Shown: one piece after another, positions 39-60,098 of the stretch | Numbering within the stretch: the stretch's first letter is position 1 | Layout: each line of letters starts with the position of its first letter | Source of the DNA: Prevotella sp. | Lineage (GTDB): Bacteria > Bacteroidota > Bacteroidia > Bacteroidales > Bacteroidaceae | Direction: 5' to 3' | Length of the DNA stretch: 64,000 nt | Assembly (NCBI GenBank): GCA_017459445.1 | Contig: JAFUDJ010000045.1 | Location: forward strand, 1-64,000 | Translations under genes and position numbers: made by a program | The notes under the pieces: generated by a model | The model's database searches: none | What the model was told of the DNA's origin: nothing | The model's input: the letters and a program-made list of their open reading frames with translations, nothing else

Positions 39-80
39 GGCCGAGATTTTTCAAAATCTGAACGAGATTTTTCAAAAAGT
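39..80 (+). repeat. 21-bp intergenic repeat, locus 1 (two units)
   Basis: Two tandem units start at 39 and 60, exactly 21 bp apart. The first begins GGCCGAGATTTTTC and the second GAACGAGATTTTTC, so both the GGCC and the GAAC variants of the family occur side by side here. The array is bounded by complementary GGGGCCGA and TCGGCCCC, so a transcript could fold it into the loop of a hairpin. Confidence 0.75.
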
Positions 81-117
81 CGGCCCCGCCTGAAGGGATG
101 CCGGGAGGGCTTCCCAT

Positions 118-141
118 GGAACTGCATATTTATGCAATTCC
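118..141. other. Inverted repeat upstream of the VapE-type gene
   Basis: GGAACTGCAT and ATGCAATTCC are complementary with one mismatch around a 4-base ATTT loop. It lies about 145 bp upstream of the -7 element of the next gene. It could be an operator or a weak hairpin; nothing decides between these. Confidence 0.35.
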
Positions 142-283
142 AGGAATCCGCCTCAGGAGCTGGCCTCTGGTGCAAGTAGTGCAACATGTTTCGGGGTATC
201 GTCTAAGACACTGTGGAAATGTTAAATCCGGCCAATAAACGTTATGTTGACGTTAAAGCGTGGCGGCAATGGCGAGGCGTGGC

Positions 284-291
284 TACCTTTG
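284..291 (+). promoter_or_regulatory. Bacteroidota -7 element TACCTTTG
   Basis: TACCTTTG matches the Bacteroidota primary-sigma -7 consensus TAnnTTTG and lies 26 bp before the ATG at 318. No good -33 TTTG is visible. It argues that an in-frame ATG at 213, upstream of this element, is not the true start. Confidence 0.6.
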
Positions 292-317
292 CACGCAAGA
301 CAAAAAACTGTGATACG

Positions 318-1703
318 ATGATACAGACCGACAACACCCTGCACACCGAAGCCATCATGCTGGCCATGAAAGCCCTCGATGTGGCCTTGAAAACCCTCGA
401 CATGATCGTCGGGACGCAAGCATCCGATGAGGGCGCGGACAAGGACATGCCATCAGAAAGCAACACTAAAAATGCCGAGACTCCAGGCGGGCACGACAGC
501 TACCGTGCCGATGCCATCCGATTCAACGAGCAGTACCTGCGCGACCACTACGAGCTGCGCTATAACACGATGAAGAAGACCACCGAGTTCCGGCCCAAAG
601 TCTCCGACGCGCAAACCGTCGGCGCAGCCCCAGCCCTCCCCCTACGGGGGGTAGATGGAGGGGAGCTTTGGCGCCCCGTCACCGACCGCGACCTGAACGG
701 CATGACCGTGGGTCAGCTGATGGCGGGCGGACAGAGCTGGAGCTACGGCATGCGCCTCTGCGTCGACTCCTCGCGCGTGGAGAGTTTCAACCCCGTGGAG
801 GACTACCTCAGCCGCCTGCCCCGGTGGGACGGCCGCGACCACATCGGCGAGCTGGCTGCCCGCGTGCCCACCCGCTACGAGGCCTGGCCGCACCTCTTCC
901 GTCGCTGGCTGCTGGCCATGGTGGCGCAGGCGCGCGGCCTCAGCCCCGACCACGGCAACTCGCTGGTGCCCCTGCTCATCGGTGCACAGGGCACGGGCAA
1001 GACCACCTTCTGCAAGATGCTGCTGCCGCGGGAGCTGCGACAGTACTATATGGACGACATCAAGATGGACTCGGCCGAGCAGGTGGAGCGCGTGCTGGGG
1101 CGCATGTGGCTGGTGAACATCGACGAGTACGACGCGAAGACGCCGCGCGAGCAGGCGAAGATCAAGCGCCTGCTGACGGAGCGCGACGTGCAGGTGCGCC
1201 GTCCGCACTCAGACCAATACGTCATGACGCGGCGGCTCTGCTCGTTCATCGCCACGACGAACGACGACCGCCCGCTCTGCGACTCCACCGGCTCACGCCG
1301 CTACCTCTGCGTGGAGCTCTCGGGACAGATAGACACCGCCACGCCCCTGGACCACGACCAGCTCTTCGCGCAGGCCCTCCAGCTGCTGGCACAGGGCGAG
1401 CCTTTCTTCCTGACGCGCCAGGAGGAGGCCGCGATGGAACGGCACAACCGCCGCTACTGCCGCCAGCTGGTGCTGGCAGACGCGGTGAATGCCGTGCTGC
1501 AGCCGGCACCGGTGGGCCCCGACACGCTCATGACCGCCACCGACATCATGAACCTGCTCTGCGATGATGGCGGCATGCGGCCACAGGATCTGCCCTCGCC
1601 GAAGCAGCTTGCCGCCGCCCTGCGCTCAGCGGGCGTGCGCCAGGGCGCACAGCAGGGACGGCATGGGTGGTATGCCAAAGCATTGACGGGCCTTTGCTGC
1701 TAA
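318..1703 (+). CDS. VapE-type (virulence-associated E) P-loop NTPase
   Basis: A 461-residue protein of the VapE family, primase/helicase-like AAA+ ATPases found on phages and integrated elements of Bacteroidales. Visible: WDG motif after YLSRLPR, Walker A GAQGTGKT (222-229), Walker B VNIDEYD (266-272), a sensor-like IATTN, an arginine pair in GSRRYL, and a C-terminal region resembling DUF3874. The start at 318 follows a -7 element at 284; an in-frame ATG at 213 would add 35 residues but lies upstream of that promoter. The N-terminal primase-like region of longer relatives is missing, and the stretch around residues 100-125 contains a palindromic in-frame insertion (632-667). No integrase, phage gene or att site is visible nearby; the left neighbour is outside the window. 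Family call is firm, actual role unknown. Confidence 0.85.
   Translation: MIQTDNTLHTEAIMLAMKALDVALKTLDMIVGTQASDEGADKDMPSESNTKNAETPGGHDSYRADAIRFNEQYLRDHYELRYNTMKKTTEFRPKVSDAQTVGAAPALPLRGVDGGELWRPVTDRDLNGMTVGQLMAGGQSWSYGMRLCVDSSRVESFNPVEDYLSRLPRWDGRDHIGELAARVPTRYEAWPHLFRRWLLAMVAQARGLSPDHGNSLVPLLIGAQGTGKTTFCKMLLPRELRQYYMDDIKMDSAEQVERVLGRMWLVNIDEYDAKTPREQAKIKRLLTERDVQVRRPHSDQYVMTRRLCSFIATTNDDRPLCDSTGSRRYLCVELSGQIDTATPLDHDQLFAQALQLLAQGEPFFLTRQEEAAMERHNRRYCRQLVLADAVNAVLQPAPVGPDTLMTATDIMNLLCDDGGMRPQDLPSPKQLAAALRSAGVRQGAQQGRHGWYAKALTGLCC
632..667. repeat. G/C-rich palindromic insertion inside a coding region
   Basis: AGCCCTCCCCCTAC followed by GGGGGG, GTAGATGGAGGGG and AGCT forms nested inverted repeats (CCCCC-TAC-GGGGG inside, CTCCCC/GGAGGG outside). 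It is read in frame in the VapE-type gene as ALPLRGVDGGEL, between conserved segments ending EFRPK and beginning WRPVTDRDLN, where relatives have a short link. It looks like a small palindromic element tolerated in a linker. Confidence 0.45.
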
Positions 1704-1775: not shown

Positions 1776-3218
1776 CTACATGCCAGCGGCGTTGGCAATC
1801 CACTCGTAGACGCAGGAGCAAACGCCAAAGAGGACGATACCCACGGTGCAGATGGCCAGGGCGGCGTTGATGGCGGTGCCGTGGCGGAAAGTGGGCAGCG
1901 GGTTCTCTTCCTTGGTGATGTACATGGCCTTAACGATGAGCAGGTAGTAGTACAGGGAGATGACCGTGTTGATGAGGGCGATGAACACCACGAAGTAGGG
2001 CCAGAAAGGAGCCTGATCCTGACCGGCCACGCCAGCCATGAACACGAAGAACTTGGAGAACATACCTGCGAACGGGGGAATACCGGCCAGCGAGAAGAGG
2101 GCGATGGTCATGATGAACGCCAGCTTCGGGTTGGTCTGGTAGAGGCCGTTGTAAGCCGACATCTTGGTGCCTGCACCGGCGCGGTGCTCGACAGCGCTGA
2201 TGACAGAGAAGACCGACATGTTGGCCACGACATAGACCAGCACGTAGAACGTGAGGGCGGTCTGCGACGTGGCGGGGTCGGCACCGATGACGGCGAGCAT
2301 GATATATCCGGCCTGAGAGATAGAGGAGAAGGCCATGAAGCGCTTCAGCTCCGTCTGGCGGATGGCCATGAGGTTGCCGATGGTGATGGTGAGCATGATG
2401 ACCACCCAGAGCATGGGCTGCCACCAGGCAATCATCGAGCCGAAGACCTTCACCAGGATGATGGCCAGCGTGAGCGTGGCAGCACCCTTGGAGACAACAG
2501 AGAGATAACCCGTGACGGGCGTAGGAGCGCCCTGATAGGTGTCAGCCGTCCAGAAGTGGAAGGGCACCAGCGAAATCTTGAAGCCCAGACCACTGAAGAA
2601 GAACACCATGCCCATGATGGCGATGGGGCTGGCCTTGATGACGGCGGCCACGTTGTCGAAGTAGAGTGAGCCAGTGGCGGCATAGATGAACGAGATGCCG
2701 AAGAGCATGACGCCGCTGGAGAATGTAGCCATGAGCACATACTTGGCAGCAGCCTCGGCAGAATCCTTCTTTTTCTTGTCGAAGGCCACGAGGCATGCCA
2801 TAGGCACGGAGGCCATCTCCAGTCCGAGGAAGAACATGAGGAACGAGCCGCTGCTGAGCATCATGTACATGCCGAGCAGTGTAGAGAGCAACAGCATGTA
2901 GTACTCGCCCTCATAGCGGCTGTTGGTCTTGAGCCATGCCTGCGACATAATGAGCACAATGGCCGTACCGACGGTGAGGATGACCTTCATCACGTTGGCG
3001 ATTTGCGAGGTGACGTAGATGCCGCCAAAGGCTTCAGCCGGCTCGCCCAAGAGTGCGATGCGCACGGGCAGGACGACCGTCAGACCCAGCGTGACAGCAA
3101 ACAGCACGTCGTGCTTCTTCTCGCTCTTGTGCATGAAGAAGTCTACCGCAAAGACTATTATCAGGATGACCACGAGATAAAACTCGGGAATCATATTCAG
3201 GAATTGTCCGTAATTCAT
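1776..3218 (-). CDS. nuoN: NADH-quinone oxidoreductase subunit N
   Basis: A 480-residue, very hydrophobic antiporter-like membrane subunit of complex I (MrpD/ND2 type), one of the proton-pumping subunits of the membrane arm. Visible are the conserved LGLEMASVPMACLVAF helix with its glutamate, the SLVPFHFWTADTYQGAPTPV segment and the later SQAGYIMLAVIG segment. Last gene of the nuoA-N run; 19 bp separate it from nuoM and a bidirectional terminator follows at 1705-1741. Length is usual for the family. Confidence 0.95.
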   Translation of the reverse strand: MNYGQFLNMIPEFYLVVILIIVFAVDFFMHKSEKKHDVLFAVTLGLTVVLPVRIALLGEPAEAFGGIYVTSQIANVMKVILTVGTAIVLIMSQAWLKTNSRYEGEYYMLLLSTLLGMYMMLSSGSFLMFFLGLEMASVPMACLVAFDKKKKDSAEAAAKYVLMATFSSGVMLFGISFIYAATGSLYFDNVAAVIKASPIAIMGMVFFFSGLGFKISLVPFHFWTADTYQGAPTPVTGYLSVVSKGAATLTLAIILVKVFGSMIAWWQPMLWVVIMLTITIGNLMAIRQTELKRFMAFSSISQAGYIMLAVIGADPATSQTALTFYVLVYVVANMSVFSVISAVEHRAGAGTKMSAYNGLYQTNPKLAFIMTIALFSLAGIPPFAGMFSKFFVFMAGVAGQDQAPFWPYFVVFIALINTVISLYYYLLIVKAMYITKEENPLPTFRHGTAINAALAICTVGIVLFGVCSCVYEWIANAAGM

Positions 3219-3237
3219 ATTTTATGTCCTCCTTTCT

Positions 3238-4761
3238 TTACATGACACCAATTGACTGAAGGATATTGCCTGCAGAGGGCGAGATGACGTTAGACACCCA
3301 GAAGGGGAACGTGCCCAGGCCTGCCACACAGAAGATGAGGCAGATGACGGCGACGCGCTCGTCCCAAGTGGCATCGGTCAGCTCCAGGAAGTGCTTGTTC
3401 TCCACCTCGCCATAGAGAATCTTACCGACAACACGCAGGATGTAGACTGCGGTGACGACGATTGACATACAGGCGATGATGGTGGCCACCATGCGGAACG
3501 AGGTGTTGGGGTCGCCACTGACGGGGTCGGCACCAAACGAGCCCACGAAGATGGTCATCTCAGCAATGAAACCCGAGAAGCCCGGCAAACCGAGGTTGGC
3601 CAGACCGGCGATGACATAGCCCACGGCCAGGAACGGCATAATCTTCATCAGGCCGGCCAGCTCGCGGATGTCGCGGGTGTGGGTGCGGCCATAGATCATA
3701 CCGATGAGGGCGAAGAAGAGGGCCGTCATCAAGCCGTGAGAGAGCATCTGCAGGATGGCACCCGTGCAGGCCGTCTGATTCATCATCAGGATGGCGAAGA
3801 GCACCAGACCGCAGTGGCTCACCGACGAGTAGGCATTGATGTACTTCAGGTCGGTCTGCACGCAAGCCGACAGCGCGCCGTAGACCACGGAGATGGTGGT
3901 CAGGATGATGAAGATCCACGACAGTTCCTGAGCAGCCTCAGGCAGCAGGTACATGGCCACGCGGAAGCAGCCATAGCCTCCCAGCTTCATCAGCACACCA
4001 GCATGGAGCATCGACACAGCGGTCGGGGCCGATGCATGACCGTCGGGCGACCATGTGTGGAACGGGAACAGGGCTCCCAGCACACCGAAGCCGATGAAGA
4101 TGAAGGGGAAGAAGGCATTCTGGATGGCCACCGGAATGGCGTGCGACGTCTGGGCAATGGCATTGACGTTCATGGTGAACGTGCCGCTATAGACACCGTT
4201 GAAATAGTAGATGCCGAGGATGCCGAGGATGAGCAGGGCCGAGCCGCCCATCAGCATCAGGGTGAGCTTCATGGCCGAATACTCCTTGCGGCCCGAGCCC
4301 CACACGCCAATGAGCAGGTACATGGGGATGAGGGCTACCTCGTAGAACATAAACATGGTGAACATGTCGGTGCAGATGAAGAAGCCGAACACACCCGTCG
4401 ACAGCAGGGTGAACCAGAGGAAGTACTCCTTGGTGAGGGGCTTCAGCTGCCAGGAGGCGAAGGTGCCCGTGAAGACGATGATGCTCGACAGGAGCAGCAT
4501 GACCACGGAGATGCCGTCGACGCCCACAGCATACTGGATGTTGAGCGGCTTGAACCAGTCGACAGCAGCGGTGAGCAGCATCTCGGCGTTGTTGCCGGCA
4601 GCGCGCTCCTGAATGAAGTAGACGGTCAGCCAGATGGAGAGTGCCAACAGACAGCTGGCTCCCGTGACCATCACGCCACGCACCTGATTGAGATTCTTGG
4701 CAAGCCAAAGACCGAGCAACATAAGTGCTGGTATAAGCACAAATAAGCTAAGTATATTCAT
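3238..4761 (-). CDS. nuoM: NADH-quinone oxidoreductase subunit M
   Basis: A 507-residue antiporter-like membrane subunit (ND4 type) of complex I. The conserved FYEVALIPMYLLIGVWG helix with the essential glutamate, the FPFHTWSPDGHASAPTAVSM segment and the SVSHCGLVLFA segment are all present. It lies 6 bp after nuoL and 19 bp before nuoN in the same orientation. No truncation or frameshift. Confidence 0.96.
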   Translation of the reverse strand: MNILSLFVLIPALMLLGLWLAKNLNQVRGVMVTGASCLLALSIWLTVYFIQERAAGNNAEMLLTAAVDWFKPLNIQYAVGVDGISVVMLLLSSIIVFTGTFASWQLKPLTKEYFLWFTLLSTGVFGFFICTDMFTMFMFYEVALIPMYLLIGVWGSGRKEYSAMKLTLMLMGGSALLILGILGIYYFNGVYSGTFTMNVNAIAQTSHAIPVAIQNAFFPFIFIGFGVLGALFPFHTWSPDGHASAPTAVSMLHAGVLMKLGGYGCFRVAMYLLPEAAQELSWIFIILTTISVVYGALSACVQTDLKYINAYSSVSHCGLVLFAILMMNQTACTGAILQMLSHGLMTALFFALIGMIYGRTHTRDIRELAGLMKIMPFLAVGYVIAGLANLGLPGFSGFIAEMTIFVGSFGADPVSGDPNTSFRMVATIIACMSIVVTAVYILRVVGKILYGEVENKHFLELTDATWDERVAVICLIFCVAGLGTFPFWVSNVISPSAGNILQSIGVM

Positions 4762-4767
4762 AGTCGT

Positions 4768-6756
4768 TTAGATGCATAAGAGGATTAATGTTAAAGCTAC
4801 TGCTCCCGTGATGAACCAGATGGCGTACTTGCGCACATCGCCACTCTGCCAGCTGCGGATGCTCTCGCCCGTCTCGTTGGCACCCCAAGCCAGGAAGTTG
4901 AACGTGCCGTCAACGACGTGGCGGTCGAACCAAGCAATGGGCGTGGAGACACAACGGAAGATGATGCGATGGGTGACGTACTGCCAGATCTCATCCTGAT
5001 AGAATCGCTTATAGGCGGCGCGGTGCAGCTTCGGGAACGTCTTGTAAAGGCGGTCGGCGATGGGCTGGCTCTCACCTTTATATATATAGGTGGCGAGACA
5101 GATGCTCAGGATGGCGATGATGGTCGAGGTGAGGGCAATCTGCGTGTCGAAGTGGATGGTGTAGTCCTGACCGCTGGCCGACACGAACGAGCCAAACGAA
5201 CCGCCCCAGCCGAGGAAACCGGCCAGCGTGGAATAGATACCCACGCCGAGGGTGATCACGGTGAGCACGATGAGGGGAATGGTCATCGTCAGCGGAGCCT
5301 CGTGCGGGGTGTGGTGCTCGTGAGCCTCCACGTTCTCCGTGCCCCAGAAGATGCCGTAGTACAGACGGAACATGTAGAAGGCGGTCATGGCGGCGATGCC
5401 GGTCATGATCCATCCCACCACAGGGCTGTAGGCGAAGCAGGCGGTGATGATCTCATCCTTCGAGCTGAAGCCCGAGAAGAACGGGATGCCTGCAATGGCA
5501 AAGCAGGAGATGAGGAACGTGATGTTGGTGATGGGCATGTACTTGCGCAGGCCACCCATCAGCGCCATCTCGTTCGAGTGGACGGCATGGATGATGCAGC
5601 CGGCTCCGAGGAACAGACAAGCCTTGAACATGGCGTGGGTGAACAGATGGAACATACCGGCCATGTAGCCCAGCTGGGCGTGGTTGTCGAGGACGGCACC
5701 ATGATGACCAGGCAGGCTGACGCCGAGAGCCACCATCATGAAGGCAATCTGCGAGATGGTGGAGAAGGCCAGCACACGCTTGATGTCGCTCTGGGCGCAA
5801 GCCACGGCAGCGGCATAGAAGGCGGTGATGACACCCACCACGACGACCACCGTCATGGCCTCAGGAGCGTACTGAATCCACAGGGGGAACATGCGGGCAA
5901 TCTGGAACACACCGGCGACCACCATCGTGGCAGCATGGATGAGGGCCGACACAGGCGTGGGGCCTTCCATGGCATCGGGCAGCCAGATGTGCAGGGGGAA
6001 CATGGCGCTCTTACCTGCACCACCGATGAACATCAGCACCAAGGCCGTGGGGATGATGCAGGCGCCGGCCGTCATGGCCTTGGCCACATTACCCTCGATG
6101 AAGGGCGTCGTGCCCTGCCCCATCACGATGTCGCCAGCAAACGAGAAGCTGAACGAATCGGTGAAGTAGCCGAAGGTCAGGATACCGATGAGGAAGAACA
6201 TATCGGCAAAACGCGTCACGATGAATGCCTTCTTAGAGGCGGCGATGGCGGGCTTCAGCGGATAGTAGAATCCGATGAGCAGGTAGCTGCTCACGCCCAC
6301 GAGCTCCCAGAACATGTACATCTGGAAGATGTTCGTGGCCAGCACCAGGCCCAGCATCGACATGGTGAAGAGCGAGAGGAAAGCATAGTAGCGCTGGAAG
6401 CCCTTCTCGCCGTGCATATAGCCGAAAGAGTAGATGTGCACCATGAGGCTGACCGTGGAGATGACAATGAGCATCATCACCGAGATGGGATCGAGCAGGA
6501 TGCCCATGTCGAAATGCAGGTTGCCCAGGGGCAGCCAGGTGAAGTTGTAGGGGACGAACGTCTGGAAGATGCCGTTCACACGGTCAGCCGTGAAGTACTG
6601 GAAGGCCGTGAGATACGACAGGATGGTGACGAGTCCGAGCGAGCTGGTGCCGATAAGTCCGGCAACCTTATGCTTCATCTTCATGCCGCAGAGACCGAGC
6701 ACAAGGAACGACAGCAGCGGCAGGAGAAGAATCCAAATAGTATATCCGTATTGCAT
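4768..6756 (-). CDS. nuoL: NADH-quinone oxidoreductase subunit L
   Basis: A 662-residue ND5-type membrane subunit, with N-terminal hydrophobic helices, the FWELVGVSSYLLIGFYY helix, the MFPLHIWLPDAMEGPTPVSA segment, and a C-terminal extension that in other NuoL proteins forms the long lateral helix running along NuoM and NuoN. It translocates protons at the distal end of the membrane arm. Nine bp follow nuoK and six precede nuoM. Length matches the family. Confidence 0.96.
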   Translation of the reverse strand: MQYGYTIWILLLPLLSFLVLGLCGMKMKHKVAGLIGTSSLGLVTILSYLTAFQYFTADRVNGIFQTFVPYNFTWLPLGNLHFDMGILLDPISVMMLIVISTVSLMVHIYSFGYMHGEKGFQRYYAFLSLFTMSMLGLVLATNIFQMYMFWELVGVSSYLLIGFYYPLKPAIAASKKAFIVTRFADMFFLIGILTFGYFTDSFSFSFAGDIVMGQGTTPFIEGNVAKAMTAGACIIPTALVLMFIGGAGKSAMFPLHIWLPDAMEGPTPVSALIHAATMVVAGVFQIARMFPLWIQYAPEAMTVVVVVGVITAFYAAAVACAQSDIKRVLAFSTISQIAFMMVALGVSLPGHHGAVLDNHAQLGYMAGMFHLFTHAMFKACLFLGAGCIIHAVHSNEMALMGGLRKYMPITNITFLISCFAIAGIPFFSGFSSKDEIITACFAYSPVVGWIMTGIAAMTAFYMFRLYYGIFWGTENVEAHEHHTPHEAPLTMTIPLIVLTVITLGVGIYSTLAGFLGWGGSFGSFVSASGQDYTIHFDTQIALTSTIIAILSICLATYIYKGESQPIADRLYKTFPKLHRAAYKRFYQDEIWQYVTHRIIFRCVSTPIAWFDRHVVDGTFNFLAWGANETGESIRSWQSGDVRKYAIWFITGAVALTLILLCI

Positions 6757-6765
6757 AATCTTCTA

Positions 6766-7074
6766 CTAGTTCTTGAGGTTAGTAATACTGTCTACGCTGT
6801 CGCTACGGAATTTGCGGTAAACATTGATAATGATGGCAATGGCGACGGCCGACTCGGCGGCAGCAACGCCAATGACAAAGAGCGTCATGAACATGCCCTC
6901 CATGCCGTTGGGATAGAGCAGGCGGTTGATGGCTGCGAAGTTGATGTCGACAGCATTCAAGATGAGCTCCACCGAGATGAGCATGGCGATGAGGTTGCGG
7001 CGGGTGACAAAGCCGAAGACGCCAATGAAGAACAGCAGTGCGCTAAGCACGAAATAACATTCTACTGGTATCAT
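6766..7074 (-). CDS. nuoK: NADH-quinone oxidoreductase subunit K
   Basis: A 102-residue protein with three membrane helices, the ND4L subunit. The conserved helix ISVELILNAVDINFAAI contains the glutamate needed for proton transfer, and the later VIGVAAAESAVAIAI helix holds the second one. Three bp after nuoJ, 9 bp before nuoL. The length is that of a complete NuoK. Confidence 0.95.
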   Translation of the reverse strand: MIPVECYFVLSALLFFIGVFGFVTRRNLIAMLISVELILNAVDINFAAINRLLYPNGMEGMFMTLFVIGVAAAESAVAIAIIINVYRKFRSDSVDSITNLKN

Positions 7075-7077
7075 AGC

Positions 7078-7593
7078 TTAATCCTCCTCCTTTCTTGCAA
7101 CAACTAGTCCACCAATGATACATGCCAACAGGAACAACGAGATGAACTCGAAGGGCAGCACGTACTGATACTTCTCACTTCCCACGAGGGCGGTACCAAT
7201 CTCGCTCATGGGCACTTCCACGTCGGCCACGCTCTCGTTGACGATGAAGCCGGCCTTCACCAGAATCAGACTGACAAGCACCAGCCCGGCAAGAGCGGCC
7301 AGTCCGCCAGCGATGAGGCGGCTGCCTTTCACGTGCTCTACAAGACCTTGTAGCGTGCGCTTGCTCACCAGCTGGATGGCGAAGACGTAGATCATCGTCA
7401 CGCCACCAGCATAGATGGCAATCTGAGCAGCTCCGAGGAAGGTGTAGTCGAGCAGGAAGTAGATGCCTGCCACACCGAAGAGCACAAACAACATATATGT
7501 TGCGGCTCGCATGATTCGCGTTGTCGTCACACACAGCAGGGCTGAGCCTACGATGACAACGGCGAAGATGATAAACATTACTATATTACCCAT
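7078..7593 (-). CDS. nuoJ: NADH-quinone oxidoreductase subunit J
   Basis: A 171-residue ND6-type subunit with five hydrophobic segments, including the conserved AAQIAIYAGGVTMIYVFAI stretch (helix 3, whose pi-bulge transmits conformational change in known complexes I). It ends in a short charged tail, ARKEED. Seven bp after nuoI and three before nuoK, so probably translationally coupled. Confidence 0.94.
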   Translation of the reverse strand: MGNIVMFIIFAVVIVGSALLCVTTTRIMRAATYMLFVLFGVAGIYFLLDYTFLGAAQIAIYAGGVTMIYVFAIQLVSKRTLQGLVEHVKGSRLIAGGLAALAGLVLVSLILVKAGFIVNESVADVEVPMSEIGTALVGSEKYQYVLPFEFISLFLLACIIGGLVVARKEED

Positions 7594-7600
7594 AGCTCAG

Positions 7601-8146
7601 TTACTTCGTTTTAGTGTTAAACGTTGCGGGCTGCCACTCAGCTCCACCATTGATCAGGTTGGGCAGTGAGCCTCCCTGATAGACCTCCTTGTCAAGGTGC
7701 AGCACCAGCTTGTTGCGGTCGAAGACGGCGTTCTCGAAATCGTTGGTGAACTCGATGGCGTCGAAGTTGCAGGCATTGGTGCAGAGCTGACAGAACATGC
7801 AGTCGCCCAGGTCGTACTGGTAGTCGTCGAGCACCTTCTTCTTCTTGCCCGTCTCAGGGTCTTCAGCCATGTGGGCGGTAATCTTGATGGTGCTGTTGGG
7901 GCAGGCCTTCTCGCACAGCGTGCAGGCGGTGCACTTGTAGGCGCCGTTCTCGTCGCGCTTGAAGACCAGGCGTCCGCGGTGGCGCTGGGCCACGTGCAGC
8001 GTGGTCTTGCGGTTCTCAGGGTACTGCTCCGTCGACTTGTTGGTGAAGAAGTCCTTGAAGTATTCCTTCCAGGTCGTCTTCATGCCAGTAGCCAGCGTCT
8101 TGATGCCGTGCCCTATTTCTCCGAAATATGATTGTTCTTTTTCCAT
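7601..8146 (-). CDS. nuoI: NADH-quinone oxidoreductase subunit I, 2x[4Fe-4S] ferredoxin-like
   Basis: A 181-residue peripheral-arm subunit that carries clusters N6a and N6b to the quinone site. Two four-cysteine motifs are seen: C72, C75, C78, C82 (followed by P) and C116, C119, C122, C126. In the second the usual proline after the last cysteine is asparagine (ACNFDA), a small departure from the CxxCxxCxxxCP pattern. The gap to nuoH is 40 bp, the widest in the operon. Confidence 0.95.
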   Translation of the reverse strand: MEKEQSYFGEIGHGIKTLATGMKTTWKEYFKDFFTNKSTEQYPENRKTTLHVAQRHRGRLVFKRDENGAYKCTACTLCEKACPNSTIKITAHMAEDPETGKKKKVLDDYQYDLGDCMFCQLCTNACNFDAIEFTNDFENAVFDRNKLVLHLDKEVYQGGSLPNLINGGAEWQPATFNTKTK

Positions 8147-8186
8147 TTTCTTTTTAATGTTTAATGGGTTGATGGGCCGAATGGGC

Positions 8187-9272
8187 TTAGAGGTACAATC
8201 CCAGCGCCACGCAGACGGTCATCAGCACGAGGTTGATGAGGCTGAGGGGCATCAGGTACTTCCATTCAAGCTTCAGAATCTGGTCGATGCGCAGACGGGG
8301 GAACGTCCACTTGATCCACATGAGCAGCCACACCACGCCAAGCGTCTTTCCGAAGAACCAGACGATGCCGGGGATGTAGTTCATCACCGTGTCGAAGGCG
8401 TCGACACCTATATTAATAGGAGCCCAGCCACCGAGGAACACCATCGTGGCAATGCCGGCGATGATGAACAGGTTGAGGAACTCAGCCAGGTAGAAGAAGC
8501 CAAAGCCCATGCCGCTGTACTCCGTGTGGTGACCGGCGGTCAGCTCGCTCTCGGCCTCGGCCATGTCGAACGGGCCACGGTTGGCCTCGGCATTACCGGC
8601 GATAAGGAACGTCACGAAGGCGATGATGGCAGGGATGTGACCCTTCACGATGAGCCAGTTCCAGGGGCCCGTCTGATACTCCACGATGCCGCTCACCTGC
8701 ATGGTGCCGGTGAGGACGACAGCGGTGATGAGGCAGAGGCAGAGCGACATCTCATAAGAAATCATCTGCACGGCGCCACGCATGGCCGAAACCACCGAGT
8801 ACTTGTTGTTGGAAGCCCAACCAGCCAGGAAGATGCCCACCACGCCAATCGACGAGATGGCGGTGATGAGGAACAGGCCCACGTTGAAGTCGAGAATTCC
8901 CATGCCGTTGTTCCAGGGCAGGAAGCAGAACGTACCCACCGAAGCCACAATCACGAGGACAGGAGCCACGGCATAGAGCAGTTTGTCGGCTTTGTCAACA
9001 AAGAAGATCTCCTTGATGAGCATTTTCAGCACGTCAGCAAAAATCTGCAGCAGGCCCCAGTAGCCTACGCGCATCGGGCCCAGGCGGCACTGGAAGTAGG
9101 CGCAGACCTTACGTTCCATGAAAATCATCAAGCAGGCAATCAGCGCGTAGGCCGTCAGCACAACGACGCCGACAATCACGCACTCTATCAATATCGCCAA
9201 CCAGTCGGGGCAACCTACCGTCACCCGCAGCAGTTGGTCAAACCAGTTTGTTACTATACTAAAATCAAACAT
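8187..9272 (-). CDS. nuoH: NADH-quinone oxidoreductase subunit H
   Basis: A 361-residue membrane subunit (ND1 type) that forms the quinone chamber with NuoB and NuoD. Conserved segments seen: AYFQCRLGPMRVGYWGLLQ early, PFDMAEAESELTAGHHTEYS in the middle (the acidic loop lining the quinone channel), and eight or so hydrophobic helices. The gene follows nuoCD by 5 bp. Complete. Confidence 0.96.
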   Translation of the reverse strand: MFDFSIVTNWFDQLLRVTVGCPDWLAILIECVIVGVVVLTAYALIACLMIFMERKVCAYFQCRLGPMRVGYWGLLQIFADVLKMLIKEIFFVDKADKLLYAVAPVLVIVASVGTFCFLPWNNGMGILDFNVGLFLITAISSIGVVGIFLAGWASNNKYSVVSAMRGAVQMISYEMSLCLCLITAVVLTGTMQVSGIVEYQTGPWNWLIVKGHIPAIIAFVTFLIAGNAEANRGPFDMAEAESELTAGHHTEYSGMGFGFFYLAEFLNLFIIAGIATMVFLGGWAPINIGVDAFDTVMNYIPGIVWFFGKTLGVVWLLMWIKWTFPRLRIDQILKLEWKYLMPLSLINLVLMTVCVALGLYL

Positions 9273-9277
9273 AATAA

Positions 9278-11601: not shown

Positions 11602-11942
11602 TCCAACGCTCCTTTCCGCCAGGCGTAGGCCAGGCCAAATACTAAGACAACCAAGAAGAAGCCGATGCTGAGCAAGGCTGCCGCACCGAACTGCTTCACT
11701 ACCACTGCCCATGGATACAGAAACACCGTTTCCACATCGAACATGAGGAACAGGATGGCGAACAGGTAGTAACCCACATGAATAGGTATCCAGCTGGAGC
11801 CGCGCGTCGGAATACCGCTCTCATACGGCTCGCCTTTCACCTTTGCATACGAGCGCGGACCAATGAGCTTAGCAATGATGTAAGCTGCCGCCACCAGTGT
11901 AATTCCCGTCGCAATGACGGTAACTAACAAAGTGAAATTCAT
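11592..11942 (-). CDS. nuoA: NADH-quinone oxidoreductase subunit A
   Basis: A 116-residue ND3-type subunit with three hydrophobic helices. The loop [40 protein letters not shown] is the conserved quinone-channel loop, though the usual cysteine (ECG) is replaced by serine (YESG). First gene of the operon; the ATG lies 47 bp downstream of a -7 element at 11989-11996. Confidence 0.95.
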
Positions 11943-12055: not shown

Positions 12056-12080
12056 GGCCGAGATTTTTTTGTGCGGGGCA
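12056..12080 (+). repeat. 21-bp intergenic repeat, locus 2 (one unit plus start of a second)
   Basis: GGCCGAGATTTTTTT at 12056, preceded by TGCGG; exactly 21 bp later, at 12077, the next GTGCGG-GGC begins but diverges into the ompA terminator. Lies between the ompA-like 3' end and the nuo promoter, with the motif antisense to both genes. Confidence 0.6.
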
Positions 12081-12081
12081 C

Positions 12082-28066: not shown

Positions 28067-28169
28067 AGCCAAGTTTTTTCTGTGGGGCCGAGATTTTTTT
28101 CTGTGGGGCCGAGATTTTTCAAAAAACGGCCGAGATTTTTTTAAAAACGGCCGAGATTTTTCACTGCGC
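28067..28169 (+). repeat. 21-bp intergenic repeat, locus 3 (four units plus one degenerate)
   Basis: GGCCGAGATTTTT units begin at 28086, 28107, 28128 and 28149, each exactly 21 bp apart though the T run varies from 5 to 7 and the linker compensates. A degenerate unit (AGCCAAGTTTTTTC) precedes at 28067 with a 19-bp step. The array fills the space between the divergent sigma factor and clpC promoters and ends 14 bp before a sigma-54 promoter. Confidence 0.9.
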
Positions 28170-50756: not shown

Positions 50757-50805
50757 CAGCAGAAAACAAAGAAACAACATGTCAAACCCTTTAAAGCATA
50801 CAATT

Positions 50806-51735: not shown

Positions 51736-51759
51736 GATACCGTTTTTTCTCTAAGCAAA

Positions 51760-51804
51760 GGCCCCGCATGCTCAAGTCTCTATTGGATTTGGACATGCGA
51801 GGCC
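51760..51804. terminator. Hairpin joining the repeat array
   Basis: GGCCCCGCATG (51760-51770) pairs with CATGCGAGGCC (51794-51804) with one mismatch. The right arm contains the first GGCC of the 21-bp repeat array, whose T run then follows the stem, so the array start doubles as the terminator of the exported-protein gene. Confidence 0.55.
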
Positions 51805-51926
51805 GAGATTTTTTCATGCGGGGCCGAGATTTTTTCATGGGAGGCCGAGATTTTTTCATGGGAGGCCGAGATTTTTTCAAAAACGGCCGAGATTTTTTCA
51901 CGCGGGGCCGAGATTTTTTCGAGTGG
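51801..51926 (+). repeat. 21-bp intergenic repeat, locus 4 (six units)
   Basis: GGCCGAGATTTTTTC begins at 51801, 51822, 51843, 51864, 51885 and 51906: six units at exactly 21 bp. The 15-bp core is identical in all six; the six following bases vary (ATGCGG, ATGGGA twice, AAAAAC, ACGCGG, GAGTGG). The array lies between the exported-protein gene and the TonB-type receptor gene. Confidence 0.97.
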
Positions 51927-52026: not shown

Positions 52027-54567
52027 ATGAGTAAAAAGCCGATACTACTCGCGGTGATTGCCATATGCGTTGCCCCTGACCTGCGGGCCCAGGAAGTAGA
52101 CTCCCTGGCCGTAGACGTGCAGACGGAGCAGGCGTTTACCTTCACCGAGGCGCAGTTGGGCGAGGACGACGATGTTGCTCAGAACGTCACCGTTATCTCC
52201 TCCAACCGCAACGTGTACGCCAGTGAAGTGGGCTACCGCTTCTCGCCCGCCAGGTTCAAATACCGTGCCTTCGGGTCGAAGTACAACGACATCTACATCA
52301 ACGGCAACCCCGTGAACGATGCTGAGCGCGGCGAGTTCCGCTACTCCTTCGTGGGCGGACTGAACAACCAGACGCGATCGCAGGAGGCCGCACTGCCCTT
52401 CGAGGACAACAACTTCTCGATGAGCGGCATGGGCGGAGCCAACAACTACAATTTCCGGCCCTCCAGCTTTGCCACGGGACAGCGCGCTTCCATAGCCGGA
52501 GCCAACCGCAACTACAACACCCGCCTCATGTACACTTATAATACGGGCGTGCGCGAGGACGGATGGGCTTTCACCGGCAGCCTCACCTACCGCTGGGGCC
52601 AGGGCATCGGCTTCGTCGACGGAACCAGCTACAACTCTCTCTCCTACTTCCTCGGAGCCGAGAAGATTCTTGGCGACGGCCACAACCTGTCGCTCGTCAC
52701 CTGGGGCAACCCCACGGAACGCGGCACGCAGGCCGCCTCGACCGACGAGATGTACTGGATAGCCAACGACCGCCTCTACAACTCGGCCTGGGGCTATCAG
52801 GACGGCAAGAAGCGCAACTCGCGTATCGTGCGCGACTTTGCCCCCGCAGCCATGCTCACCTGGGACTGGAAAATCGACCACCAGACCAAGCTGACCACCT
52901 CACTGCTGGGCAAGTACTCCATGTACAGCAGCAGCCGCCTGAACTACAACAACAGCACCAACCCCGCACCCGACTATTACTCGACCATGCCGAGCTACTT
53001 CTTCAACGTGTGGGATTCTGAGGCTACCTCCGACCGCGGCAACGAGGCTTTGGCCAACTGGCAGACGGCCTACGACTACCTGTCGGCATGCAAGGAGAAC
53101 CGCCAGGTGCAGTGGGACCGCATTTACTATGCCAACAAGATGGCCTCGCAGCAAGGCGCTGACGCCATGTACTACTTGCAGCGCTACCACGATAACCAGC
53201 TGTCGCTCTCGCTGGCCACCTATCTGGACAAGCAGCTCACCAAGAGCTCGCAGCTCCACGCCGGCTTGCAACTCTCCACGAACAAGGGCATGCACTACCA
53301 GACCATGGACGACCTGCTGGGCGCCACCTCGTTCCACAATACCAACACCTACGTCATCAAGAACTACGGTGAAAACAGCTATCAGGCCCAGTACGACCTG
53401 AACCATCCCAACCAGGAGATTCACGAAGGCGACCGCTTCGGCTACGACTACAACATCTACGTGAACAAGGCCCAACTGTGGGCCGGCTATACCACCGACA
53501 TCAAGTTTGCCCACATCTTTATTAATGGGCGCGTGGCCGGCACCACCATGCAGCGTCAGGGCAACATGTGGAACGGACTGGCCTATGCCAACTCCTTCGG
53601 CAAGAGCGGCACAGCCCGCTTCCTCGACGGTGGCGGCAAGCTGGGTGCACACTTCAACCTGGGCCAGGGCCACGCCATCATGGTGGGTGCCGGCTACGAG
53701 CTGAAGACGCCCGCCGCCCGCACTGCCTTCCAGGCCGCCCAGGTGAACAACGACTTCGTGCGCGACCTGAAGAACGAGAAAGTGCTCTCGGCCGAGGTGG
53801 GCTACCAGCTGAAGTCGACGTGGGTAAAGGCCAACCTGAATGCCTACTACAGCAAGCTGAAGGACGTCACTGAGCAGTCAATGTACTACATGGACGACCG
53901 CCGCTCGTTCACCTACGTCTCGCTCACCGGCATCGAGAAAGAATACTACGGCGTGGAGCTGGGCCTGAACTTCAAACTCACCGACTGGCTCAACCTGAAA
54001 GCCCTGGGCACCGTCAGCGAAGCCAAGTATGCCAACGACGCCGACGTGAGCTACATGCTCTCTGAGGACGGTCTCACCTACTACGACAAGGTGCACAGCA
54101 AGGACATGCGTGAGGGCTGCACGCCGCTCACCGCTGCCAGCCTCGACTTCAGCTACCACGCCAACGGCTGGTACATCGACCTCATTGGCAACTACTACGA
54201 CCGCATCTACCTCTACTACACGCCCGTCACCCGCTACGACAACCACCTCAGCAGCCAGCCCAACGCCTACAACGACGACGGCGAGCTGACCAACATTCCC
54301 CCGCAGGCCAAGGGTCACGGCGGATTCATGCTCGACGCTTCCATCGGCCGCCAGTTCTACCTCAAGCACGGGCGCCGCTTAGGCTTCAACCTGATGCTCA
54401 CCAACATCCTGAACAACATGAACATCGTCACCGGCGGTCGAGAGCAGAGCCGTACTGACGTGGACGAATCGGGTGAGAGCATCCGCACCTACTCCTTCCA
54501 GAACAGTCCCTACAAGTTCTATGCCAACGGCACCAACGGCATGCTGATGGTCAACTATTACTTCTAA
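52027..54567 (+). CDS. TonB-dependent receptor-type outer membrane protein
   Basis: An 846-residue outer-membrane barrel. Signal peptide (PILLAVIAICVAPDLRAQ), then a plug-like segment (VTVISSNRNVYASEVGYRFSPARFKYRAF, YNDIYINGNPVNDAERGEF), then strands with alternating aromatic residues to the terminal NYYF. The usual Bacteroidota N-terminal carboxypeptidase-like domain is absent and the plug is reduced, so it is an atypical family member. Two OB-fold lipoproteins follow at 12 and 18 bp gaps in one transcript, as in other Bacteroidota loci with DUF5689. Substrate unknown. Confidence 0.8.
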   Translation: MSKKPILLAVIAICVAPDLRAQEVDSLAVDVQTEQAFTFTEAQLGEDDDVAQNVTVISSNRNVYASEVGYRFSPARFKYRAFGSKYNDIYINGNPVNDAERGEFRYSFVGGLNNQTRSQEAALPFEDNNFSMSGMGGANNYNFRPSSFATGQRASIAGANRNYNTRLMYTYNTGVREDGWAFTGSLTYRWGQGIGFVDGTSYNSLSYFLGAEKILGDGHNLSLVTWGNPTERGTQAASTDEMYWIANDRLYNSAWGYQDGKKRNSRIVRDFAPAAMLTWDWKIDHQTKLTTSLLGKYSMYSSSRLNYNNSTNPAPDYYSTMPSYFFNVWDSEATSDRGNEALANWQTAYDYLSACKENRQVQWDRIYYANKMASQQGADAMYYLQRYHDNQLSLSLATYLDKQLTKSSQLHAGLQLSTNKGMHYQTMDDLLGATSFHNTNTYVIKNYGENSYQAQYDLNHPNQEIHEGDRFGYDYNIYVNKAQLWAGYTTDIKFAHIFINGRVAGTTMQRQGNMWNGLAYANSFGKSGTARFLDGGGKLGAHFNLGQGHAIMVGAGYELKTPAARTAFQAAQVNNDFVRDLKNEKVLSAEVGYQLKSTWVKANLNAYYSKLKDVTEQSMYYMDDRRSFTYVSLTGIEKEYYGVELGLNFKLTDWLNLKALGTVSEAKYANDADVSYMLSEDGLTYYDKVHSKDMREGCTPLTAASLDFSYHANGWYIDLIGNYYDRIYLYYTPVTRYDNHLSSQPNAYNDDGELTNIPPQAKGHGGFMLDASIGRQFYLKHGRRLGFNLMLTNILNNMNIVTGGREQSRTDVDESGESIRTYSFQNSPYKFYANGTNGMLMVNYYF

Positions 54568-58467: not shown

Positions 58468-58511
58468 TCATATTTGAGAAAAACAATATTCATTAATAAA
58501 TAGCTAGAACA

Positions 58512-59063
58512 ATGAGAACAGTTTATGATTTCACTGTCAAGGACAGAAAAGGTAAGGATGTGTCGCTCAAGGAGTATGCCAACGAAGTGCTGCTCATCGT
58601 GAACACTGCAACCAAGTGCGGCTTCACTCCGCAATACGACGAGTTGGAAAAGCTCTACGAGAAATACCACTCACAAGGCTTTGTCATCCTCGACTTCCCC
58701 TGCAACCAGTTCGGCCAGCAGGCTCCCGGCACCGACGAGAGCATTCACGAGTTCTGCAAGCTGAACTTCGGAACGGAGTTTCCCCGCTTCAAGAAGGTGA
58801 AGGTGAACGGCCCTGACGCCGACCCGCTGTTCAAGTACCTCCAGGAGCAGAAAGGCTTTGCCGGTTGGGACATGGAGCACCCCATTGCCCATATTCTCGA
58901 CGATATGCTCTCGAAGGAAGACCCCGACTACAAAGAGAAAGCCGACATCAAGTGGAACTTCACCAAATTCCTCATTGACAAGAAAGGCCTTGTCATGGCT
59001 CGTTTCGAGCCCACGGAGAAGATGGAGAACATAGAGAAAAAGATTGAGGAACTATTAAAATAA
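58512..59063 (+). CDS. Glutathione peroxidase-family (thioredoxin-dependent) peroxidase
   Basis: A 183-residue Cys-type peroxidase. Catalytic residues: C36 (TATKCGFT), Q70 (FPCNQFGQQ), W148 and N149 (KWNFTKFLI). The resolving-type FPCNQFG Cys is also present. Bacterial enzymes of this sort mostly use thioredoxin, which fits trxB 38 bp downstream in the same direction. It removes organic hydroperoxides in the cytoplasm. Confidence 0.93.
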   Translation: MRTVYDFTVKDRKGKDVSLKEYANEVLLIVNTATKCGFTPQYDELEKLYEKYHSQGFVILDFPCNQFGQQAPGTDESIHEFCKLNFGTEFPRFKKVKVNGPDADPLFKYLQEQKGFAGWDMEHPIAHILDDMLSKEDPDYKEKADIKWNFTKFLIDKKGLVMARFEPTEKMENIEKKIEELLK

Positions 59064-59101
59064 AAAGACAACTGTTGTCTTTGTTGTCTTCATCCAAAAA
59101 C

Positions 59102-60031
59102 ATGAAAACCAAATGTCTGATTATCGGCAGTGGCCCCGCAGGCTACACTGCCGCCATCTATGCCAGCCGCGCCAACCTGAGTCCGATTGAATACTGCGGA
59201 CTGCAGCCCGGCGGACAGCTGACGCAGACCACCGAGGTGGAGAACTTCCCCGGCTACCCCGAGGGCGTGGACGGCAACCAGATGATGATGGACCTGCGCC
59301 AACAGGCCGAGCGTTTCGGTACCGACATCCGCGACGGCGAGATTGTGGAGGTGGACTTCTCTGCCCGCCCCTATCACCTGAAGGATGATGCTGGCAACGA
59401 GCTGGAAGCCGACACAGTCATCATCGCCACGGGAGCCTCAGCCAAGTACCTGGGTCTGCCTGACGAGCAGAAATATATGGGACAGGGCGTCTCGGCCTGC
59501 GCCACCTGCGACGGTTTCTTCTACCGCAAGAAGACCGTGGCCGTGGTGGGCGGCGGCGATACGGCCTGCGAGGATGCCCTCTACCTGAGTGGACTCTGCA
59601 AGAAGGTCTACCTCATCGTGCGCAAGCCTTTCCTGCGTGCATCGAAGGTGATGCAGCAACGCGTCATGGATCGCGAAAACATCGAGATTCTGTTCGAGCA
59701 CAACACCCTCGGTCTCTTTGGTGGAGAGGGCGTGGAAGGTGCTCATCTGGTGAAACGGAAGGGCGAACCCGACGAGGAGCAGGTCGACATCGCCATTGAC
59801 GGGTTCTTCCTCGCCATCGGCCACAAGCCTAACACCGACATCTTCCGCCAGTGGCTCGACACCGACGAGGTGGGCTATCTGAAAAAAATTGACGGTACCC
59901 CTCGCACCAAGCTGCCCGGTGTCTTCGTGGCCGGCGACTGTGCCGACCCTGTCTACCGCCAGGCCATCAGCGCTGCCGGAACAGGCTGCCAAGCCGCCAT
60001 AGAGGCCGAGCGTTTCCTGCTGGGACAATAA
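59102..60031 (+). CDS. trxB: Thioredoxin-disulfide reductase
   Basis: A 309-residue FAD/NADPH flavoprotein. FAD-binding GSGPAG (9-14), redox pair C133-C136 (SACATCDGFFYR), NADPH-binding GGGDTACEDA, and the C-terminal FVAGDCADPVYRQ-x-ISAAGTGCQAAI. It keeps thioredoxin reduced and so supports the peroxidase encoded before it. The start at 59102 gives the standard N-terminus; an ATG at 59075 is out of keeping with the family. Followed by a strong terminator built from the 21-bp repeat. Confidence 0.97.
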   Translation: MKTKCLIIGSGPAGYTAAIYASRANLSPIEYCGLQPGGQLTQTTEVENFPGYPEGVDGNQMMMDLRQQAERFGTDIRDGEIVEVDFSARPYHLKDDAGNELEADTVIIATGASAKYLGLPDEQKYMGQGVSACATCDGFFYRKKTVAVVGGGDTACEDALYLSGLCKKVYLIVRKPFLRASKVMQQRVMDRENIEILFEHNTLGLFGGEGVEGAHLVKRKGEPDEEQVDIAIDGFFLAIGHKPNTDIFRQWLDTDEVGYLKKIDGTPRTKLPGVFVAGDCADPVYRQAISAAGTGCQAAIEAERFLLGQ

Positions 60032-60042
60032 GCGTGAAAAAC

Positions 60043-60098
60043 GAACGAGATTTTTTAAAAAGTGAACGAGATTTTCAAAAATCTCGTTCACTTTTTTT
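60043..60098. terminator. 21-bp repeat locus 5 acting as a bidirectional terminator
   Basis: Two GAACGAGATTTT units begin at 60043 and 60064, exactly 21 bp apart. The second is followed directly by its own reverse complement (AAAATCTCGTTCACT, 60078-60092), making a stem of up to 19 bp (AAAAAGTGAACGAGATT on the left) with a T7 run. It sits between convergent trxB and nadC and can stop both. Confidence 0.9.

What the first reader, a model, noticed from the sequence alone, without database searches (positions are those of the whole stretch)
39..60098. A dispersed intergenic repeat with an exact 21-bp period
GGCCGAGATTTTTTC (or GAACGAGATTTTT) plus about six free bases occurs at five intergenic places (39, 12056, 28067, 51801, 60043), in one to six units, and the step is 21 bp at every junction between well-preserved units even where the T run is 5, 6 or 7 long. 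Keeping the step while the linker changes suggests that helical phase is selected. A T-tract every two helical turns should bend DNA in one direction. No coding frame and no known element (IS, REP, CRISPR) explains it. Roles to consider: nucleoid-protein binding, a chromosome-organising site, supercoiling buffer, or a source of terminators.
Basis: partly seen in the sequence, partly recalled or inferred. Interest (0 to 1): 0.85.

Follow-up and report, generated by a model that had tools for sequence, protein, structure and literature searches.

The report
Intergenic repeats with fixed two-turn step
Between its genes this bacterium carries short repeated DNA blocks spaced exactly 21 letters apart, two turns of the double helix, and related bacteria show the same or nearly the same spacing (21 or 22) with quite different letters, so the spacing rather than the sequence seems to be what is kept.

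Summary
Observation confirmed. All 15 CGAGATTTTT sites of the window are intergenic, and all 10 junctions between neighbouring good units are exactly 21 bp. The contig is probably mis-binned: its composition fits other Prevotella MAGs better, and the rest of the bin has a different, 22-bp family. In eight genomes, seven of them picked through a 21-bp pair, 41 of 42 pairs step by 21 although 11-40 was allowed. In unselected 20-kb pieces of 20 Prevotella genomes, 26 intergenic arrays have period 22, none 20, 21 or 23; shuffles give none. Unit sequences differ between species, even at one gene boundary. Arrays of period 21 and 22 carry fewer indels per substitution than other tandem repeats, also after selected cases are removed. 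Not supported as general roles: curvature, oriented terminators, RAYT-borne REPs. Best reading: a REP-like repeat class spread within lineages, its two-turn register held at the DNA level, most likely by a protein on one face; no protein is known. Closest in print: BrickBuilt (23 nt, P. gingivalis) and PINSR (P. intermedia).

The parts
37..87 (+). Array 1: two units (from 39 and 60: GGCCGAGATTTTTCAAAATCT, GAACGAGATTTTTCAAAAAGT) enclosed by an outer inverted repeat GGGGCCGA...TCGGCCCC
   Evidence: RNA fold of 20-110 z -2.07
12056..12073 (+). Single unit beside the terminator-like hairpin of the OmpA-family gene 12159-12866; left edge of a 16-kb block that is absent between the same genes in relatives
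   Evidence: + strand fold of 12040-12105 z -1.10, - strand fold of 12040-12140 z -3.40, the latter mostly the neighbouring hairpin; synteny
28067..28165 (+). Array 2: one degenerate and four good 21-bp units in the divergent spacer between a sigma-70 gene (-) and a ClpC/ClpB-like gene (+); right edge of the same block
   Evidence: no RNA structure beyond shuffles, z +0.38/-0.32
51760..51770 (+). Inverted partner GGCCCCGCATG of array 3 (reverse complement of CATGCGGGGCC at 51815-51825)
   Evidence: fold of 51755-51880 z -2.58
51794..51921 (+). Array 3: six 21-bp units GGCCGAGATTTTTTC+6, downstream of gene 50779-51735 and upstream of gene 52027-54567
   Evidence: TRF period 21 x 6.0; steps 21; no RNA structure beyond shuffles, z +1.98/+0.82
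60043..60099 (+). Array 4: two units plus an inverted copy, forming a two-way terminator-like hairpin (60057-60098) between convergent genes (pyridine-nucleotide reductase-like and quinolinate phosphoribosyltransferase-like)
   Evidence: fold z -3.89 (+) and -4.43 (-)

Best explanation
The arrays are one group's version of a class of dispersed, non-coding intergenic repeats found across Prevotella. Genomes differ in unit sequence (CGAGATTTTT-type in the window's contig and several rumen MAGs), but units are mostly laid head to tail at two helical turns: 21 bp in this group, 22 bp in most of the genus sample. SHOWN here: the step, its conservation with replaced unit sequences, reduced indels, intergenic position, partial dyad symmetry of units on average, near-identical units shared at non-orthologous places between species, presence or absence at orthologous gene boundaries, and position at two edges of a rearranged block and at both contig ends. 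INFERRED: (1) the elements spread and are homogenised within a genome by recombination or by an unknown mobilising activity, as REP/BIME-like repeats do; (2) the register is held because the working form is double-stranded DNA with equivalent sites on one face of the helix, most likely bound side by side by a small dimeric protein (nucleoid-type or regulator) that tolerates substitutions better than a shift of register. Copies that carry an inverted unit may also serve as local two-way terminators; that is a side effect, not the rule.
For: Step exact in the window. 41 of 42 pairs at 21, one at 22, in 8 genomes with steps 11-40 allowed (seven of the eight were reached through loci that hold a 21-bp pair, so only the near-absence of other steps counts). 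TTTTCATGAA family, chosen from 22-bp arrays: 122 rows, 106 at 22, 6 at 21, 10 at 43, steps 13-43 allowed; 4 of 8 genomes have it. AAAAGTCCGC family of the bin's other contigs: 12 of 12 G000 pairs at 22, and the one G269 pair too. Unselected sample: 26 arrays at 22, none at 20, 21 or 23; 5 shuffles of the same spacers give none. Indels per substitution 4/217 (period 21) and 16/351 (period 22) against 47/468 for other periods up to 40; 4/180 for 21-bp arrays without the exact search pair, and 8/307 against 25/282 within the unselected pieces. Unit symmetry: longer symmetric stems than shuffled units on average (4.65-5.27 against 3.7-3.8) and lower variation at paired than unpaired sites in three sets; 45 control arrays of period 14-19 show neither. 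Mixed orientation to genes argues for a double-strand role. G423 element: of 18 exact terminal palindromes in the sampled pieces, 17 have the left modules in the same register and one is off by one base. Orthologous spacer of array 3: different 21- or 22-bp units in G269, G121 and G174, plain terminators in G425 and G248 (read by eye).
Against: No protein is identified. One genome can hold several unrelated unit families (for example the G334 and G156 pieces), which is hard for one sequence-specific protein. Steps near 31-33 bp (three turns), which plain same-face selection should allow, are rare: 2 of 91 at 32. 22 bp is not exactly two turns of relaxed B-DNA. Only a minority of arrays beat their own shuffled unit by two or more pairs (9 of 26, 2 of 17, 6 of 34), and double compensating changes are nearly absent (2, against 107 single changes). 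Tract phasing for bending is not conserved. 42-44-bp arrays have near-ordinary indel rates (21/266), and 22-bp arrays inside the 21-bp group have many (8/44).
Confidence: 0.4

Rival explanations
1. Mutational ruler: an unknown cutting, copying or repair activity makes tandem duplications of fixed length (22 bp in most sampled Prevotella, 21 bp in the window's group). The arrays themselves have no function.
For: Step is fixed whatever the unit sequence; 22-bp arrays without clear hairpins exist; several families per genome; three-turn steps are rare.
Against: Diverged arrays keep register: period-21 arrays above 15% divergence have 1 indel per 119 substitutions and period-22 ones 10 per 293, whereas a pure ruler predicts ordinary indel decay. 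Stems vary less than spacers. No such enzyme is known to me.
Confidence: 0.25
2. Plain mobile element: REP- or MITE-like non-autonomous elements moved by a transposase, with the 21-bp step only an inherited feature of the founder.
For: 18 near-identical copies with a sharp right border in the G423 pieces; same units at unrelated loci of C31, G422, G425, G428; presence or absence at orthologous spacers.
Against: Y1/RAYT transposase (PF01797) found in only 3 of 8 genomes (G422, G423 weakly, G426) and not in G000, G424, G425, G428, G429 (incomplete MAGs). No BrickBuilt-type IS5 end at the window arrays. One founder cannot explain 21/22 steps in many unrelated unit families. No target-site duplication was shown.
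Confidence: 0.2
3. Transcription terminators or 3'-end RNA elements amplified in tandem.
For: Array 4 and the G121, G174 and G269 versions of the array-3 spacer look like hairpin plus T run (relatives by eye). In same-direction spacers arrays lean to the 3' side in three of four sets (mean position 0.43, 0.27, 0.39; 0.59 in the bin's pieces, n=4), and convergent spacers hold somewhat more than their share in two sets (14 of 55 against 19% of bases; 4 of 15 against 17%).
Against: The direct arrays at 28067 and 51801 fold no better than shuffles; orientation to genes is mixed; arrays also sit between divergent genes (7 of 12 in the bin's own pieces); RNA needs no two-turn step.
Confidence: 0.1
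4. Phased T tracts that bend DNA in one direction.
For: Tract phasing at 10.5 bp is 0.79 in array 3, 0.75 in a G425 array, 0.75 and 0.63 in two 22-bp arrays (any exact repeat with one tract per unit tends to score well).
Against: 0.46 in array 2, 0.17 and 0.22 in arrays 1 and 4, 0.26-0.28 in the G423 and G424 elements; most of the genus sample uses 22 bp.
Confidence: 0.05

Closest known systems
BrickBuilt MITE of Porphyromonas gingivalis (PMC4596501; outline, sections 5 and 8, part 1 of section 7, and passages seen)
   Same: Intergenic tandem direct repeats in a related organism, 19 places in one strain, imperfect units with few indels, predicted stem-loops
   Different: 23-nt unit, long leader and tail with IS5-type terminal repeats, P. 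gingivalis and P. gulae only in that account; no such ends at the window arrays; the window step is 21
PINSR, 188-bp repeat of Prevotella intermedia/nigrescens (PMC4755523; sections 9, 14 and passages seen)
   Same: Intergenic, judged non-coding, clade-specific, 177-184 copies, no terminal inverted repeats, linked by its authors to rearrangement
   Different: Described as one 188-bp unit; its letters are not in the text seen, so any inner 21/22-bp step was not tested
REP/BIME palindromic repeats, GTAG- and CGTC-tagged (PMC3733652; search listing and one passage seen; BIME recalled)
   Same: Short, extragenic, high copy, dyad symmetric
   Different: No GTAG in the five window arrays and one CGTC, in the 12040-12110 stretch; no RAYT found in several carrier genomes; head-to-tail fixed step
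41-, 23- and 22-nt tandem repeats of P. gingivalis W83 (mentioned in PMC4596501 section 7)
   Same: Unit lengths near one or two times 21-22 bp in a Bacteroidales genome
   Different: That account says their exact locations were not identified in the original report; no fixed-step rule is stated in the parts seen
Borg tandem repeats (PMC9879509; search listing and passages seen)
   Same: Rapidly evolving, locus-specific tandem units, some of 20-21 nt, partly intergenic
   Different: Units described as perfectly repeated, of variable length, also in genes, A-biased; archaeal extrachromosomal elements
Plasmid iterons and MuA/TnsB end sites of about 22 bp (recalled, from no call)
   Same: Two-turn direct repeats bound by a protein on one face
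   Different: One locus per replicon or element, not dispersed intergenic arrays; no initiator or transposase link found here

Membership tests
BrickBuilt MITE | 23-nt tandem unit | tested here: not met
   All 10 window junctions are 21
BrickBuilt MITE | IS5-type terminal repeat (GAGACCTTTGCA-like) at element ends | tested here: not met
   Two matches with up to 2 mismatches in the window against 6.1 expected, at 282 and 30820, neither at an array
REP elements with RAYT | GTAG or CGTC tag at the palindrome | tested here: not met
   0 GTAG in five arrays; 1 CGTC, in the 12040-12110 stretch
REP elements with RAYT | Y1/RAYT transposase in the carrier genome | tested here: inconclusive
   3 of 8 genomes match PF01797; not found in G424 (88 sites of CGAGATTTTT) or G425 (27), but the genomes are incomplete MAGs
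Described RNA family | Rfam match at the arrays | tested here: not met
   Only three tRNAs in the window at gathering cut-offs
PINSR | Match to the 188-bp consensus | not testable with these tools
   Consensus shown only in a figure of PMC4755523
Fixed-step Prevotella intergenic arrays (proposed here) | Intergenic tandem units at 21 or 22 bp | tested here: met
Fixed-step Prevotella intergenic arrays (proposed here) | Partial dyad symmetry of the unit | tested here: inconclusive
   True on average but in a minority of single arrays; the window's direct arrays do not fold beyond shuffles
Protein-bound operator or nucleoid array | A protein binds the units on one face | not testable with these tools
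   Needs biochemistry

The most novel reading that the evidence does not exclude
Across a large bacterial genus, intergenic tandem arrays obey a group-specific length rule (22 bp, or 21 bp in one group of rumen genomes) that is independent of sequence: unit sequences are replaced between species at the same gene boundary while the two-turn register stays. This points to an undescribed DNA-level system, either a filament-forming protein that reads spacing and symmetry rather than sequence, or an enzyme with a 21/22-bp ruler that writes such arrays.
Probability: 0.35. Interest if true: 0.85.

Novelty: new variant of a known kind. Interest (0 to 1): 0.6.

Why it matters
Repeats are usually recognised by sequence, so a class defined by step length is easily missed. 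If the rule holds, it gives a direct handle on how chromosomes of a major gut and rumen genus are organised or rearranged, a test of what reads spacing in bacterial DNA, and a practical marker for binning and for explaining assembly breaks (the window's contig ends in arrays on both sides).

Tried and rejected
Coding tandem repeat: rejected, 0 of 15 sites in called genes.

RAYT-mobilised REP: not supported as the general explanation. IS5-type MITE like BrickBuilt: no ends found. Known RNA family: none.

Terminators as the main role: not supported on orientation and folding, kept for single copies. Curvature as the common function: not supported.

Origin-linked position: tried. In four genomes of two contigs each, the TTTTCATGAA arrays lie mainly on the contig without dnaA (84 of 90 loci, rows within 300 bp merged). 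Along it, Rayleigh tests give p 0.006, 0.001 and 0.003 in three genomes, treated as circles; the largest-gap test agrees in two (p 0.004, 0.003) but not in G334 (p 0.68). PMC4755523 section 9 says that oriC commonly lies far from dnaA in Bacteroidetes, and four ORFs at the start of G170:C1 show no initiator, so no origin claim is made.

Viral spread: one IMG/VR contig held GGCCGAGATTTTTTCA, a single unit in GC-rich sequence, taken as chance.

Compensating base changes as proof of hairpin selection: not found.

Selection artefact in the indel test: some regions had been chosen through an exact 21-bp pair. Repeated without such arrays and on unselected pieces alone; the effect remains.
Full report
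WHAT WAS CHECKED. CGAGATTTTT is strongly over-represented in the window (17 matches with up to one mismatch against 3.5 expected; 0 of 100 shuffles). None of the 15 exact sites lies in a called gene (genes were called with my own simple codon-usage script, first used). The units sit at the five stated places. All ten neighbouring distances are 21 and longer distances within an array are multiples of 21, with T runs of 4 to 7. Tandem Repeats Finder gives period 21 at 28062-28163 (three overlapping rows) and 51794-51920.

THE CONTIG. The window is the start of contig C31 (69,177 bases) of a 1.97-Mb, 55% complete bin. 21 of the 25 CGAGATTTTT sites in the bin are on this contig, including a further array at its right end (69052-69166); the left end begins 38 bases before the first unit. 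In tetranucleotide use 17 of 19 sampled pieces of the bin resemble each other at 0.84-0.92 (two, L137 and L142, at 0.78 and 0.72), while all 19 resemble C31 at only 0.62-0.80; L137 is the one piece slightly closer to C31. Five of six C31 pieces resemble G422, G423, G424 and G425 better than the bin; the sixth is mixed. The rest of the bin has its own family, AAAAGTCCGC, with 12 of 12 pairs at step 22 on seven contigs and none on C31. I conclude that C31 is probably mis-binned. Among the 355 genus genomes scored (43 more could not be scored), the nearest match of its Clp-like gene is G275 at 87% identity.

THE STEP IN OTHER GENOMES. A scan of genome contigs for two cores exactly 21 bp apart gave 29 loci: 19 titled Prevotella or Prevotellaceae (several from rumen), 2 Bacteroidales and 8 other taxa. 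CGAGATTTTT itself is abundant in RGIG8062 (G423, 227 sites, reversed-pattern control 2), SRR1206671_bin.47 (G424, 88, control 1) and RGIG1450 (G425, 27, control 1). In the genus sample, 94 of 398 genomes had at least one GRMCGAGATTTTT, nearly all with one or two as in the control; only G000, G153 and G248 had five or more. With the gap free from 1 to 30 bases, 42 pairs were listed in eight genomes: 41 at step 21 and one at 22. Seven of these eight genomes were reached through, so the presence of 21 is partly by choice; the near-absence of any other step is not. De novo TRF on the sampled spacers agrees: periods 20/21/22 are 3/16/4 in G423, 1/12/0 in G424, 1/3/1 plus 19 of 43 in G425. Those pieces were chosen because they hold the 10-mer, some of them because they hold a 21-bp pair.

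A GENERAL RULE. I took 20-kb pieces at one fixed position from 20 genomes of the genus with few contigs, not chosen for repeats. In 192 spacers (59.8 kb), TRF found 26 arrays of period 22, none of 20, 21 or 23, one of 24, and five of 41-44; five shuffles of the same spacers gave nothing above period 18. 11 of the 20 pieces have a 22-bp array. Pooled with pieces near the C31 relatives and with the bin's other contigs, 43 of 91 arrays of period 16 or more are 22 and 7 are 21 (four of the pooled bin pieces were chosen around single CGAGATTTTT sites). Seven pieces of other genera of the family gave three 22-bp arrays among seven arrays, in two of the pieces. Pieces from other families of the order (20 fetched, several short, two under 3 kb skipped) gave no 21 or 22, one of 20 and two of 23, both in one genome; one of the shuffled sets there gave a 21. 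Two more pieces of that genome gave no further array. 200 kb of E. coli K-12 gave one array, of period 20. In coding DNA of the genus sample, periods 21 (4) and 22 (2) are not dominant. A second family checked genome-wide, TTTTCATGAA, gave 122 rows in 4 of 8 genomes: 106 at 22, 6 at 21, 10 at 43, about two steps; some palindromic sites appear on both strands, so rows exceed loci.

SEQUENCE CHANGES, STEP STAYS. The spacer that holds array 3 in the window can be read in relatives (the units below were read by eye). G269 has other 21-bp units followed by a terminator-like hairpin. G121 has three 22-bp palindromic units ending in a T run (only the downstream gene was anchored there). G174 has 22-bp units. 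G275 has a hairpin with a T run. G425 and G248 have a plain terminator-like hairpin and no array. G338, G083 and G197 were anchored on the downstream gene only and are not used. Yet G425 carries 59 bp at 98% identity to array 3 at another place, although its two flanking genes are 81.5% and 84.0% identical to the window's. So units are shared between species at non-orthologous places and replaced at orthologous ones.

REGISTER IS HELD. In self-alignments of arrays, indels per substitution are 4/217 for period 21 and 16/351 for period 22, but 18/174, 13/132 and 16/162 for the other groups up to 40 (Fisher p 0.0001 and 0.008). Because some regions were chosen through exact 21-bp pairs, I repeated the count: 21-bp arrays without such a pair 4/180 (31 arrays, p 0.001 against 47/468), and within unselected pieces 22-bp arrays 8/307 against 25/282 for other periods (p 0.002). 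Against this: 42-44-bp arrays are near ordinary (21/266), 22-bp arrays inside the 21-bp group have 8/44, and the seven unselected 21-bp arrays have 2/33. The G423 element consists of 21-bp modules ending in AAAAATCTCGTACGAGATTTTTT. The palindrome was the search key, so its invariance is by construction; the register to its left is not. Of 18 exact palindromes in the sampled pieces, 17 have their left modules at the same distance and one is off by one. Conservation drops at once outside the right end, stays high for two modules to the left (1.50, 1.58 bits) and then falls (0.69, 0.19).

STRUCTURE. Units of 21- and 22-bp arrays have longer symmetric stems than shuffled units on average, and paired sites vary less than unpaired ones (22-bp: 0.063 against 0.124 and, in a second set, 0.083 against 0.109; 21-bp: 0.062 against 0.092); control arrays of period 14-19 show neither (2.84 against 2.72; 0.088 against 0.085). 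Only 17 of 77 arrays beat their own shuffles by two or more pairs, and compensating double changes are almost absent (2 against 107 single), so this is no proof of hairpin selection. In the window, the direct arrays fold no better than shuffles, but copies with an inverted unit do (60030-60110 z -3.9 and -4.4; 51755-51880 z -2.6; 20-110 z -2.1). T tracts are phased for bending in array 3 and in a G425 array but not in the G423 or G424 elements.

SETTING. Arrays lie in all kinds of spacer, with a lean to the 3' side in three of four sets and to convergent spacers in two (in the bin's own pieces 7 of 12 are in divergent spacers, against the trend). Orientation to genes is mixed: 3 sense, 4 antisense, 4 convergent, 3 divergent and 2 at an edge, the double entry of the 60043 site removed. 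Genes 1776-12036 are followed by the Clp-like gene (window 28256) after a spacer of about 0.6 kb in G275 and 82 bp in G338, while in the window a 16-kb block lies between, bounded by the single unit at 12056 and array 2. G174 and G197 have 7.5 and 6.7 kb of other DNA there. In G338 part of the block lies further along the same contig. Which order is ancestral was not tested. Arrays thus mark rearrangement edges, which can mean that they recombine, or only that spacers tolerate breaks.

COMPARISON. The nearest published items found are BrickBuilt of P. gingivalis (23-nt units inside a MITE with IS5-type ends; PMC4596501) and PINSR of P. intermedia (PMC4755523). In the parts I saw, neither states a fixed step across species. 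The search for Prevotella with 22-bp, tandem repeats and intergenic returned 0 papers; the listings showed no description of such a rule, but the library holds open-licence papers only.

VERDICT. The helical-register idea gains support; bending and terminators do not explain the whole. The mechanism is open; a protein-bound two-turn array is my first choice at 0.4, a fixed-length duplicating activity the main rival.

Noticed in passing
window 1-64000 (G000:C31): The contig is probably mis-binned: composition and repeat family differ from the rest of the bin.
   Followed up: yes
window 12056-28161: A 16-kb block (ompA-like gene, three tRNAs, sigma-70 gene) sits between genes that are separated by 82 bp in G338 and about 0.6 kb in G275; both edges carry the repeat.
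   Followed up: partly
G334:C1, G170:C1, G156:C1, G372:C2: The TTTTCATGAA 22-bp family is mainly on the contig without dnaA (84 of 90 loci) and uneven along it in three genomes tested by Rayleigh, though not by largest gap in G334; reason unknown.
   Followed up: partly
L148-L162 (G425): A 43-bp alternating repeat of two palindromic cores (CTCACGTGAG and GGGAGGCCTCCC types): 19 of 48 tandem arrays in the sampled spacers have period 43, one of them with a different unit (pieces chosen around CGAGATTTTT sites).
   Followed up: partly
window 51405-51562: Coding tandem repeat of period 21 (score 99) and 42 (score 175) in the gene just upstream of array 3; same step, but in frame, so perhaps coincidence.
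   Followed up: no
window 279-1703: VapE-like gene beside array 1 at the contig start, suggesting a mobile element near the break.
   Followed up: no
L254 (G053): Two 23-bp arrays of nearly the same unit in another family of the order; two further 20-kb pieces showed none.
   Followed up: partly
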